From NCBI GenBank assembly GCA_040905475.1, contig JBBDRM010000010.1, positions 29,244 through 61,359 on the forward strand: DNA of 32,116 bases, written 5' to 3'. Shown here in pieces: positions 7,298 to 11,644 of this stretch. The notes below the pieces were generated by a model. It saw only the letters and a program-made list of their open reading frames with translations. It had not been told where the DNA came from and did not search any database. A program made the translations under genes and the position numbers. The DNA comes from Actinomycetota bacterium (GTDB taxonomy: Bacteria > Actinomycetota > AC-67). Each line of letters starts with the position of its first letter. Positions within the stretch are counted from its first letter, which is position 1.

Positions 7298-9112
7298 ATG
7301 AGACGGATCCTTACCGCGATCGCGATCGTAGGCCTGCTCGCCGGCGTGTTCCCGGCTCGCGGTGCGACCCCCGACTCGGGAACGGTCAGTCCCACCTCGC
7401 CGACTCTTAGCTACCAGGGAGCCGAGTTGACGGGCGCACCCATCGCCGGTCCGCCCCTGTGTGTCGAGGGCGTGATCTGCGACACGTTCACGCTCACGCT
7501 GGAGGTCCCGGCCGGTTTCTACGAGACGGAGACGCGCGAACTCGTAGCTTCGATCTCGTGGGAGGACAACGCCAACGACCTGGACCTCTTCGTGTGCCCG
7601 GGAACCCAACAGGAAGACCCGGAGTGTAGCGACGGCACGTCCGAGCTGAGCGCCGGCACCGATTCCGAAACGATCGTGATCAAGGAGCCGCAACCGGGTA
7701 CCTACCGCGTCATCGCGGTGGCGTACGGCGGCACCACCGCCTACGAGGGAAGCATCGGGTTCCTGCCACCTCCAAAGCCGGCCGCGCCGTCGCTCGTGAC
7801 CCGGCCGGGAGACCTGACGGCAGAGACCACCGGCGACGGGCGGCTCATCGCTTCGATCGCGTTCCCCGGCGGGACCGATCTCGACTTCAGCGGAACGCTC
7901 GCGTTCGTCGGCTCCTACGACGGCACGGACGGCGGTTTGAGGATCTTCGACATCGCCGACCCCCGCCGCCCGCGACTGATCGGCCGCTTCCCGTGCTCGG
8001 GAAACCAGAACGACGTCGGCGTCTACCGCACGACCGTCGTCATGGGGATGCACAGTTCGGGAAGCACACCCGGATGTACGCCTGTGGACGAGGGCGGCCT
8101 TCGCATCATCGACGTCACCGACCCCACCCGGCCGACGCAGACCGCGTTCGTCAAGATCGGGCCGGCCGGGACGCACACGCTCACCATCGTCGGGGACACC
8201 GGATACGTCTACGCCAACCCCGGTGGCCTCGGGACGAGCCCGGACGAATTCCCCACCACGATCGTGGACATCCGCGATCCCTCGAATCCCAAGATCGTCG
8301 GCACCTGGACCCCACCGCAATCGCTCGGGTGTCACGACATCAACGTCGTCGGGAACCGCGCATACTGCGCCGGCTCCAACGTGACGCACATCATGGACAT
8401 CACCGATCCTGTCCACCCGACCGTCGTCTCTTCGATCTTCAACCCGGTGATCCAGCTGCACCACGGGGCAGCTCCGAGCTCGGACGGCAAAGTGCTCGTC
8501 ATCGCCGACGAAGCGATCGGGGCTCACCTGTGCGATCCGGCGGGAGCGAATCCGACCGGGGCTTACTGGTTCTACGACATCTCCGATGAGCATCAGCCCG
8601 TCCTGCGAGGGTGGACGGGCACCCCCGGGCTTACCGACGTCGCGGTGCTCGGTTACGTATGCACCGCTCACAACTTCAACATGGTCCCCGACCGGCCTTG
8701 GATGGTCGCAGCCTCCTACACCGCGGGAACTTCGATCATCGACTTCACCGACCCCGCAGCGCCCACGTTGGTCGCTCAGGTCAGGGGGGCAGAGGCCGAT
8801 ACGTGGTCGTCGTATTTCCACAACGGCTTCATCTTCACGGGCGATCGCGGTCGTGGCTTCGACGTGATCGAGCATCCGGAGCTGACCGCCCTCGCGCCTG
8901 CCGGACTCGCTGCGCCCCAGCCCGCATCGCCGAAGCCGGCGCCCCAGCCGAGCGTGCGTTCCGGCCGAGCGCTGCCGGGAACGGGGCTCGAATCGGGCGC
9001 ATTGGGTCTGACCGGCGGAGCTTTGCTCGCAGGTGCCACCGCGGTTGGCGTCTGGTCGTCGAGATCGCTCCGCGGCCCTTCGCGTCGCCAGCGGCGCGGT
9101 CCGGCGGCGTAG
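7298..9112 (+). CDS. Exported LVIVD-repeat beta-propeller protein with LPGTG anchor signal
   Basis: A 604-residue surface protein. AGGAGG precedes the ATG, and a signal peptide (RRILTAIAIVGLLAGVFPA) follows. Residues about 65-155 look like a PPC-type beta domain (SWEDNANDLDLFVCPG, QPGTYRVIAVAYGG). Residues about 170-540 contain LVIVD repeats with recurring DITDP-x-x-P blocks (GLRIFDIADPRRP, GLRIIDVTDPTRP, IMDITDPVHP, IIDFTDPAAP), predicted to fold as a beta-propeller. LPGTG at 559-563, a hydrophobic segment and an Arg-rich tail complete a sortase-type signal. A Cys-His/Cys pattern (LGCHD...YCAG) and VCTAHN are shared with the paralogue at 15023. The role is unknown; adhesion or ligand binding are guesses. 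Confidence 0.9.
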   Translation: MRRILTAIAIVGLLAGVFPARGATPDSGTVSPTSPTLSYQGAELTGAPIAGPPLCVEGVICDTFTLTLEVPAGFYETETRELVASISWEDNANDLDLFVCPGTQQEDPECSDGTSELSAGTDSETIVIKEPQPGTYRVIAVAYGGTTAYEGSIGFLPPPKPAAPSLVTRPGDLTAETTGDGRLIASIAFPGGTDLDFSGTLAFVGSYDGTDGGLRIFDIADPRRPRLIGRFPCSGNQNDVGVYRTTVVMGMHSSGSTPGCTPVDEGGLRIIDVTDPTRPTQTAFVKIGPAGTHTLTIVGDTGYVYANPGGLGTSPDEFPTTIVDIRDPSNPKIVGTWTPPQSLGCHDINVVGNRAYCAGSNVTHIMDITDPVHPTVVSSIFNPVIQLHHGAAPSSDGKVLVIADEAIGAHLCDPAGANPTGAYWFYDISDEHQPVLRGWTGTPGLTDVAVLGYVCTAHNFNMVPDRPWMVAASYTAGTSIIDFTDPAAPTLVAQVRGAEADTWSSYFHNGFIFTGDRGRGFDVIEHPELTALAPAGLAAPQPASPKPAPQPSVRSGRALPGTGLESGALGLTGGALLAGATAVGVWSSRSLRGPSRRQRRGPAA

Positions 9113-9148: not shown

Positions 9149-10099
9149 TTACGCCTTTGACAGGATCGCGATGTCGTCCGGGGCATCGCCGACGGGAATG
9201 GTCTTGATTACCCGGTGGTTCTCCGTGTCGATCACCGACACCGTGTCGGAGCCAAAGTTCGCGACGAAGAGCAGCCTTCCGTCCGGGGAGATCGCGATCC
9301 CCCCGGGCTCCTGTTGTACCCGGATCGTGTCGACCACTTGGAACGTCAGCGCGTTGATCACGCTCACCGTGCCGTCGTTCTTGTTCGTCACGTAGAGGCG
9401 CCTTCCGTCCTGCGCCATCGCGAGCAGCGACGGATCCTTCCCCACCTTGATGGACCCGAGGATCTGGAAATCATCCGTGGAGAGGACGGACACCGCGCTC
9501 CACGTCCTGCTCGTCACGAATGCGTACTTGCCGTCCGGCGAGAACACCGCGTCGTAGGCGAAGGGCCCGGCCGGGTGCCGCGAGACAAGTGTTCCCGTCG
9601 CCGGGTCGATCTCGCTGAGATCGTTCGACCCGCGGTTCACCGCCCACAGACGACCGCCGGGTCCGGCGATGATCTGGTGCGGCGCGAACCCGATCGCCTC
9701 GGTCGTGAGAACGGTGAGCGTCGTCGTGTCGATCACGGTCATGTAGCCGTCGCCGCAGGCGACGAAGGCGCGACCCGCCGCGAACGCGGCGTTGACCGGA
9801 CCCACGCAAGTTTTGATCGAGGTAACGACCTTCCGCGAAGCGATGTCGATCACGGAAACGGAATCGCCCTCGATGTTCGACGCCCAGATCCGCTTGGCGC
9901 CCGGCTCGATATCGACGCCGTGCGGTTTTCCGGGCAACGGGATCCGCGCGAGCACTTTCATCGATCCGGCGTCTACGACGGCGACGTCCTTCGAGTTCGT
10001 GTCCGCGACGAACAACGTGCCCTCGAAGCTCGGAGACGAGCTACAGGAGACGAGAACGAGCAAGCACGCGAGCGCACCGAGTGTGGAGCGAAGCTTCAC
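9149..10099 (-). CDS. YVTN-type beta-propeller lipoprotein
   Basis: A 316-residue exported protein made almost wholly of YVTN-type propeller repeats: GTLFVADTNSKDVAVVD, KRIWASNIEGDSVSVID, RRLYVTNKNDGTVSVIN and RLLFVANFGSDTVSVID are blade signatures about 40 residues apart, enough for seven blades. The GTG at 10099 gives a lipobox LVSC with Cys19; a GTG at 10117 would add six residues. An open frame upstream to 10516 mirrors the divergent gene. Such propellers act as ligand-binding scaffolds, and the large subunits of methylamine and related quinoprotein amine dehydrogenases share the fold. It diverges from a MauE-TlpA-PqqD gene with about 100 bases between, so co-regulation is plausible. It is convergent with the LVIVD gene at 9112. 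Enzymatic activity cannot be inferred. Confidence 0.87.
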   Translation of the reverse strand: MKLRSTLGALACLLVLVSCSSSPSFEGTLFVADTNSKDVAVVDAGSMKVLARIPLPGKPHGVDIEPGAKRIWASNIEGDSVSVIDIASRKVVTSIKTCVGPVNAAFAAGRAFVACGDGYMTVIDTTTLTVLTTEAIGFAPHQIIAGPGGRLWAVNRGSNDLSEIDPATGTLVSRHPAGPFAYDAVFSPDGKYAFVTSRTWSAVSVLSTDDFQILGSIKVGKDPSLLAMAQDGRRLYVTNKNDGTVSVINALTFQVVDTIRVQQEPGGIAISPDGRLLFVANFGSDTVSVIDTENHRVIKTIPVGDAPDDIAILSKA

Positions 10100-10201
10100 G
10101 GCGTCGGAGGGTAGCACGGCGGCCGGATGCGGAAGATCCGGCAAAGGCCTCCGCGGAGTCCGGCGGACGAAGGCTGCAGGGCCGGTAGGATTCGCATCTC
10201 G

Positions 10202-11644
10202 ATGGACGCATCCTCGGTCGTGCTCCGCATCATGCTCGCGGCGGTGTTCGCCGTCTCGGGGATCGCGAAGCTCCGTGATCGCGAGGGAACGCGGCGTGCG
10301 GTGGAGGGCTTCGGCCTGCCGGGCGCGCTCGTGGGTCCTGTCGCATTCGGGCTCCCGATCGCCGAATGCGCGATCGCGGTATCGCTCGTTCCCGGCACCT
10401 CGGCTCGGGCCGGAGCGGTCGCCGCCATCGGGCTGCTGGCCGCGTTCATCATCGGGATCTCGATCAACCTGGCTCAAGGACGCCGCCCGGACTGCCACTG
10501 CTTCGGGCAGTTGCACTCCGCTCCGGTCGGACCGTCGACGCTTGTGCGAAACGTGTTCCTGGCCGCGGCCGCAGGGGTCGTCGTGTTCGGTGCGGGCCCC
10601 GACGCCGGCGGCAGCGTGATCGACGCCATCGAGGACCTCGACGGCCCAGGGGTCGTCATCGTTAGCGTCGCGGTCGTTGCGATCGCCGTGGCGCTCGCCG
10701 TTCTCGGTCGCAGTGGAACGACGCTCATCACCGGCGGGCCGACCGACGCCGAAATGGCCGCGAGGCGCCCCACCGCACCACCGGTCGGAAGCGCCGCGCC
10801 CTCGTTCTCCCTCGCCCGGGCCTCGGGCGGCACGGTCGCACTCTCCGATCTGCTGGCGCGGGGCAGGCGTGTGTTGCTCGTCTTTTTCTCACCGTCGTGC
10901 GGTCCGTGTGTCCGGATCGCGCCCGAGCTTGCACGCTGGCAGCGCGATTTCGCAGACACCTTGACGGTGACCGTCTTGAGCAGCGGCGCCCCGGAGGCCG
11001 TACTCGAGCGCGCGACCAAGTACGAGATCGCCGGGGCGCTAGTCGATGAGCATGGTGAGGTGGCGAAGTCGTATGGTTCTCGCGGCACGCCGGGAGCGAT
11101 CTTGATCGACCCGAGCGGCCTGGTTGCTTCCGCACACGCATCGGGCGACGGGGAGATCAACGATCTGCTCATCGAGGCATTCGGCCTGACCGAGGTCGTT
11201 GCCGGCGTCGCGGCTGAGATCGAGGCCAAAGCCGAAGCGTCGCACGAGCACGATGATGAAGACGGTCACGATCACACCGAACACCTGAAGGTGGCTTCGC
11301 CTGCCGAGGATCTCCTCGACCCGCAAGCGCTCGGAGCCACGTTCGTTCCGGTCGGCCGCAGCGATGTGTCGATCGCCGAGCGCGACTACGAGATGGTTCT
11401 GGTCGACCACGGGTCCGGAGCTGTGCACGTGCTCAATCCGACGGCCGCGATCGTGTGGCAGTGCTTGGATGGGACCGGATCCGTCGAGGAGATCGTCGGC
11501 GACATCGCCGAGGTGTTCGAACGCGACAGGGGCGAGGTTCAGGAAGCCGTGCTTGAGGTCGTTCGGCGATTCGGACGACAAGGGTTGCTCGAAGGGGTCG
11601 GCGTCCCGCCGGAGAAACCGGCGCCCGCTCAGGCCGCGCCTTAG
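10202..11644 (+). CDS. MauE/DoxX-TlpA thioredoxin-PqqD three-domain fusion protein
   Basis: A 480-residue membrane redox protein. Residues 1-170 form a MauE/DoxX-like membrane domain with about five hydrophobic segments and a C98-H-C100 motif (RPDCHCFGQ), typical of MauE-type redox proteins. Residues about 195-330 are a TlpA/peroxiredoxin-like thioredoxin fold with active site C233-GP-C236 and cis-Pro297 (RGTPG). A His/Asp/Glu-rich linker (348-361) could bind metal. Residues about 376-465 are a PqqD-like domain (VLVDHGSGAVHVLNPTAA); PqqD and related RRE domains bind peptides destined for modification. MauE and MauD (thioredoxin-like) mature methylamine dehydrogenase; here both are fused to a peptide-binding domain. 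The start at 10202 removes an unlikely N-terminal extension to 10127. It ends 10 bases from a convergent gene. Confidence 0.88.
   Translation: MDASSVVLRIMLAAVFAVSGIAKLRDREGTRRAVEGFGLPGALVGPVAFGLPIAECAIAVSLVPGTSARAGAVAAIGLLAAFIIGISINLAQGRRPDCHCFGQLHSAPVGPSTLVRNVFLAAAAGVVVFGAGPDAGGSVIDAIEDLDGPGVVIVSVAVVAIAVALAVLGRSGTTLITGGPTDAEMAARRPTAPPVGSAAPSFSLARASGGTVALSDLLARGRRVLLVFFSPSCGPCVRIAPELARWQRDFADTLTVTVLSSGAPEAVLERATKYEIAGALVDEHGEVAKSYGSRGTPGAILIDPSGLVASAHASGDGEINDLLIEAFGLTEVVAGVAAEIEAKAEASHEHDDEDGHDHTEHLKVASPAEDLLDPQALGATFVPVGRSDVSIAERDYEMVLVDHGSGAVHVLNPTAAIVWQCLDGTGSVEEIVGDIAEVFERDRGEVQEAVLEVVRRFGRQGLLEGVGVPPEKPAPAQAAP

What the first reader, a model, noticed from the sequence alone, without database searches (positions are those of the whole stretch)
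10202..11644. MauE-TlpA-PqqD triple fusion with a His-rich linker
One polypeptide joins a MauE/DoxX membrane redox domain (C98-H-C100), a thioredoxin fold with CGPC (233-236), a His/Asp/Glu-rich linker (348-361) and a PqqD-like peptide-binding domain. MauE and MauD are accessory proteins for tryptophan-tryptophylquinone maturation in methylamine dehydrogenase, and PqqD-type domains deliver peptides to modifying enzymes. The combination suggests a membrane-bound thiol-redox device that holds a peptide or protein client during export or maturation. No radical SAM enzyme or precursor peptide is visible nearby.
Basis: partly seen in the sequence, partly recalled or inferred. Interest (0 to 1): 0.62.

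Follow-up and report, generated by a model that had tools for sequence, protein, structure and literature searches.

The report
Membrane thiol-redox enzyme with peptide-docking domain
One bacterial protein joins a membrane thiol-redox device (MauE plus a thioredoxin-fold domain) to a small PqqD-type peptide-docking domain, a combination seen in only this one of the genomes searched, and relatives of its parts sit beside cysteine-rich proteins that are exported folded, which suggests that it sets the disulfide bonds of one such client.

Summary
In detail: window 10202-11644 (+) encodes one 480-aa protein with MauE (Pfam E 5e-29), a TlpA/ResA-like domain with CGPC (2e-16), a His/Asp/Glu linker and a complete PqqD domain (6e-15). 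AlphaFold gives the last domain the RRE order bbb-aaa; its best solved matches are the leader-binding lasso B1 proteins TbiB1 and TfuB1. No other triple fusion turned up in 397 genomes of the phylum or among 80 MauE-TlpA loci from a scan of 84,980 species, so it is rare, perhaps unique. The PQQ/TTQ reading is weak: no SPASM radical SAM or lasso B2 protease was found in the genome. New evidence points to a client type. MauE-TlpA genes outside one housekeeping context often sit beside twin-arginine (Tat)-exported Cys-rich proteins (12 of 51 loci; 14 ORFs nearby against 1 far away). In three loci such proteins carry an N-terminal PqqD domain. Charge patterns in 70 of 70 sequences, and a Tat signal fused behind TlpA in two relatives, put the CxC loop, TlpA and PqqD on the cytoplasmic side. 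Best explanation: an RRE-guided oxidoreductase acting on a Cys-containing client before Tat export. The window's own client is unidentified.

The parts
10202..11644 (+). whole fusion gene, 480 aa; single gene between a divergent and a convergent neighbour
10205..10588 (+). MauE domain (residues 2-129), four of the five membrane helices
   Evidence: Pfam PF07291 5.1e-29; helices 2-25, 41-61, 65-91, 111-130 in the model
10493..10501 (+). C98-H99-C100, invariant in the 40-row homologue alignment
10643..10717 (+). fifth membrane helix (residues 148-172)
10784..11179 (+). TlpA/ResA-like thioredoxin-fold domain (residues 195-326)
   Evidence: Pfam AhpC-TSA 1.9e-16; best fold match ResA, TM 0.79 on target
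10898..10909 (+). CGPC redox motif (residues 233-236); both Cys invariant in homologues
11240..11284 (+). His/Asp/Glu-rich linker (residues 347-361), low model confidence
11327..11599 (+). PqqD/RRE domain (residues 376-466)
   Evidence: Pfam PqqD 6.1e-15; model bbb-aaa, pLDDT 86; TbiB1 and TfuB1 best PDB matches
9149..10117 (-). divergent neighbour: YncE-like beta-propeller lipoprotein; no proven link
   Evidence: Pfam YNCE 1.5e-19; sequence; gene call

Best explanation
This is a membrane-anchored thiol-disulfide oxidoreductase of the MauE-TlpA type that has gained a client-docking domain. The PqqD/RRE domain holds a segment of a Cys-containing precursor on the cytoplasmic face. The tethered CGPC domain then sets the redox state of that client's cysteines, most likely making disulfides, and passes the electrons to the MauE CxC motif and on into the membrane. 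The client is then exported folded, most likely by Tat. Shown here: the three domains, the RRE fold, the charge pattern, and the association of relatives with Tat-exported Cys-rich proteins. Inferred: cytoplasmic docking, direction of electron flow, and the identity of the client.
For: Domains and fold. MauE-TlpA genes outside the tgt-yajC-secDF context have a Tat-signal Cys-rich ORF within 1.5 kb in 12 of 51 loci: 14 ORFs in 133 kb near against 1 in 345 kb far, nominal p 2e-7. PqqD domains sit N-terminal to a Tat signal and Cys-rich domain near MauE-TlpA in L074, L075 (four genes, in the tgt context) and L079, 89 bp downstream on the same strand in L079. In L023/L025 a Tat-Cys-rich domain is fused behind MauE-TlpA. 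All 70 sequences carry more K/R on the loop 1, loop 3 and post-TM5 side. The genome's own PqqD/HprK/NTP_transf_5 cluster includes a Tat protein with 10 Cys. The decRiPPter paper reports MauE near precursors with at least 8 Cys (PMC7794033).
Against: No Tat Cys-rich gene is in the window. The fusion is a singleton, so it has no conservation of its own. The positive-inside comparison favours the longer segments (about 79 residues against 26), although K/R per residue also agrees. TlpA/ResA proteins usually work outside the membrane and are often reductants. Most MauE-TlpA loci have no recognisable client next door.
Confidence: 0.42

Rival explanations
1. The PqqD domain is an adaptor to the genome's HPr-related-kinase (HPr-rel-A-like) clusters: it binds the kinase, nucleotidyltransferase or their shared substrate in trans, and the redox part supplies thiol chemistry to that pathway.
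For: The closest PqqD relatives (46% and 45% identity) include a stand-alone PqqD in an HprK_rel_A + NTP_transf_5 + Tat-protein cluster (L036). The genome itself has such a cluster (L033) plus other PqqD genes. This overlaps with the best explanation, since these clusters also hold a Tat protein.
Against: The fusion gene is not in or near those clusters; the HPr-rel-A PqqD and HprK models are matched only below their cut-offs.
Confidence: 0.2
2. An extracytoplasmic TlpA/ResA-type reductant; the PqqD domain is exported with it and serves as a generic protein-binding domain on the outer face.
For: TlpA, ResA and DsbE relatives act outside the membrane by established knowledge; the neighbours are secreted beta-propellers.
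Against: The charge pattern in 70 of 70 sequences favours the opposite side; a Tat signal fused after TlpA in L023/L025 needs TlpA in the cytoplasm; RRE domains with known function act in the cytoplasm (own knowledge).
Confidence: 0.2
3. Part of quinone-cofactor (TTQ or PQQ) or lasso peptide maturation.
For: MauE and MauD take part in methylamine dehydrogenase maturation; PqqD and lasso B1 are the nearest solved folds.
Against: No SPASM radical SAM and no lasso B2 protease found in the 97%-complete genome; no mau structural or precursor genes in the window; PQQ, lasso and MauD models below cut-off.
Confidence: 0.05
4. A recent chance fusion or assembly join without a function of its own for the PqqD part.
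For: Only one example found; absent from the four family relatives, as are its two neighbours.
Against: The frame is open throughout and the PqqD domain keeps the whole profile and core motifs, which argues against decay.
Confidence: 0.13

Closest known systems
MauE-TlpA and MauE-TlpA-TlpA membrane proteins (MauE/DoxX redox family)
   Same: CxC membrane domain, fifth helix, CxxC thioredoxin domain; 30-45% identity over the shared part
   Different: Relatives often continue into one or two further TlpA domains; here a PqqD domain takes that place
MauE + MauD of methylamine dehydrogenase maturation
   Same: Same two domains, there as separate proteins; the client MauA is a disulfide-rich exported subunit (own knowledge)
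   Different: Fused here, MauD model not met (39.5 against 188.6 bits), no mau structural genes in the window
Stand-alone PqqD / RRE proteins (TbiB1, TfuB1, PqqD; HPr-rel-A PqqD)
   Same: Fold bbb-aaa, 27-28% identity to lasso B1 proteins, up to 46% to actinobacterial stand-alone PqqD
   Different: Fused to a membrane redox enzyme; no SPASM radical SAM or lasso B2 partner found in the genome
MauE-containing candidate RiPP clusters of Streptomyces (decRiPPter, PMC7794033)
   Same: MauE linked to Cys-rich precursors
   Different: No RRE fusion is described in the passages read; here also a Tat-signal link and PqqD-Tat-Cys precursors

Membership tests
MauE family (PF07291) | profile match above cut-off and CxC motif | tested here: met
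   101.6 against 27 bits; C98, C100 invariant
TlpA/ResA-type thioredoxin fold | AhpC-TSA/redoxin fold with CxxC | tested here: met
   60.5 against 26 bits; ResA best fold match
PqqD / RRE domain (PF05402) | profile above cut-off and bbb-aaa fold | tested here: met
   55.7 against 23.4 bits; model and fold search
PqqD / RRE domain (PF05402) | binds a leader or recognition peptide | not testable with these tools
   needs binding data
PQQ biosynthesis PqqD (TIGR03859) | model cut-off; SPASM radical SAM partner | tested here: not met
   20.6 against 46 bits; no SPASM match in the genome
Lasso peptide B1 (NF033530) | model cut-off; B2 protease partner | tested here: not met
   38.8 against 70 bits; no PF13471 match in the genome
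HPr-rel-A PqqD (TIGR04353) | model cut-off; HprK_rel_A neighbour | tested here: not met
   22.9 against 35 bits; no such gene in the window, though the genome has a similar cluster elsewhere
MauD (TIGR02661) | model cut-off | tested here: not met
   39.5 against 188.6 bits

The most novel reading that the evidence does not exclude
An RRE-guided, cytoplasm-facing disulfide-forming enzyme that oxidises specific Cys-rich precursors before Tat export: enzymatic disulfide formation in an unexpected compartment, and a use of RRE domains outside peptide modification, with PqqD either fused to the enzyme (window) or to the client (L074, L075, L079).
Probability: 0.27. Interest if true: 0.7.

Novelty: new variant of a known kind. 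Interest (0 to 1): 0.42.

Why it matters
MauE is a long-known maturation factor with an unsettled mechanism. The fusion, together with PqqD-Tat-Cys-rich neighbours of MauE-TlpA in other genomes, links MauE-TlpA to a testable client class and suggests that RRE domains guide redox folding as well as peptide chemistry.

Tried and rejected
A full-length query over 397 phylum genomes scored only four candidates per genome, so I repeated it with a PqqD alignment and read 13 regions with longer open frames; none held MauE or TlpA. Earlier Tat-Cys filters gave different counts: the codon-based gene caller drops Cys-rich genes, and one search was too strict (6 loci). One search is the final filter, fixed after seeing the earlier ones, so its p-value is indicative only, and ORFs of one locus are not independent. 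Plasmid relatives gave only MauE-TlpA or TlpA matches, and the one inspected has no annotation. Literature searches found no MauE-PqqD fusion in the library held.

Full report
Observation. The ORF at 10202-11644 (+) is open and encodes 480 residues. Pfam finds MauE, AhpC-TSA/redoxin and a complete PqqD domain, all above gathering cut-offs. AlphaFold with 39 homologues gives five membrane helices and a confident thioredoxin domain. With six PqqD relatives the C-terminal domain folds as bbb-aaa, pLDDT 86, the order that the RRE literature requires (PMC12710340). Foldseek places it first with the leader-bound lasso B1 proteins TbiB1 and TfuB1, TM about 0.82 on the target, E about 1e-5; the sequence search agrees. 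The thioredoxin part is closest to ResA.

Rarity. The four other species held for the class lack the fusion, and lack close relatives of the two flanking genes tested, so this looks like an accessory region. Over 397 genomes of the phylum no second fusion appeared, with the full-length query or with a PqqD alignment and inspection of the longer frames. A further class search gave none (searches cover the same 66 genomes). The scan of 84,980 species returned 80 MauE-TlpA loci; none carries PqqD in the same ORF. Many have a second or third TlpA domain where the window has PqqD. These scans are not exhaustive: genome contigs was matched by six exact peptide patterns.

Surroundings. The gene stands alone: a divergent YncE-like lipoprotein starts about 85 bases away, and a convergent Abhydrolase_10 gene follows. 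A secreted LVIVD protein with 10 Cys lies beyond the lipoprotein. No radical SAM, precursor or Tat Cys-rich gene was found in the window. Genome-wide there is no SPASM domain and no lasso B2 protease, which removes the usual PqqD partners. Three other PqqD genes exist. One lies in a cluster with an HprK_rel_A-like kinase, an NTP_transf_5 protein and a Tat protein with 10 Cys (L033). The window's PqqD domain is most like stand-alone actinobacterial PqqD proteins, one of them in such a cluster.

What MauE-TlpA does in relatives. Twenty-nine loci, mostly Acidobacteriota, share a tgt-yajC-secDF context. In the other 51, 12 have within 1.5 kb an ORF with a twin-arginine signal and at least 5% Cys: 14 such ORFs in 133 kb near the gene and 1 in 345 kb further away, and that one is in a MauE-TlpA locus too. 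Ktedonobacter racemifer has three in a row (L059). In L074, L075 and L079 the Tat Cys-rich proteins begin with a PqqD domain; in L079, a Solirubrobacterales genome, this gene follows MauE-TlpA by 89 bases, in the same order as the domains of the window fusion. In L023/L025 a Tat-Cys-rich domain is fused behind MauE-TlpA. The decRiPPter study independently noticed MauE beside precursors with at least 8 Cys (PMC7794033).

Topology. Across 70 sequences, mean K/R is 3.8 in loop 1, 2.1 in loop 3 (with CxC) and 3.9 after TM5, against 0, 0.2 and 0.9 in the other three segments; all 70 lean the same way. Part of this is length, but the density agrees. By the positive-inside rule CxC, TlpA and PqqD then face the cytoplasm. 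The fused Tat signal of L023/L025 asks for the same. That would place PqqD where RRE domains work, and would put thiol chemistry before Tat export, which carries folded proteins (established knowledge; PMC7317946 abstract).

Mechanism. I therefore propose docking of a Cys-containing precursor by PqqD, oxidation of its thiols by CGPC, and electron transfer to MauE CxC and the membrane. Domains, fold, charge bias and neighbour association are shown; docking, oxidising direction and client are inferred. The 10-Cys Tat protein of the kinase cluster is the first candidate client, but nothing links it to this gene except the shared PqqD type.

Noticed in passing
L075 2-697, 879-1523, 2160-2675, 3411-3932; L074 12369-13001; L079 2323-2943: A protein type with an N-terminal PqqD domain, an internal Tat signal (SRRxVxR) and a Cys-rich C-terminus, near MauE-TlpA genes in genomes of two phyla (Acidobacteriota, Actinomycetota); no description was found in the papers searched.
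   Followed up: partly
L023 1414-2943; L025: MauE-TlpA fused to a Tat-like signal and a Cys-rich domain that recalls the MauA light chain; a natural topology reporter.
   Followed up: partly
L051 and 28 other loci, mostly Acidobacteriota: MauE-TlpA-TlpA lies in a conserved tgt-yajC-secDF context, with Tat Cys-rich genes seen only in L075, so it may have a general export-related role there.
   Followed up: partly
L033 3048-7681; L036 4475-11783: Clusters of PqqD, HprK-related kinase, NTP_transf_5, response regulators, sugar genes and a Cys-containing Tat protein (choice-of-anchor P) in the own genome and a relative; function unknown.
   Followed up: partly
L135 3047-4588 and 9960-11354; L138 5336-6745; L144 2318-3361: PqqD domains at the end of glycosyltransferase-like and methyltransferase-like frames, so PqqD is a mobile fusion domain in this phylum (partner types judged by eye).
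   Followed up: no
window 7298-9112: Secreted LVIVD-repeat protein with 10 Cys and an LPGTG-like cell-wall anchor end.
   Followed up: no
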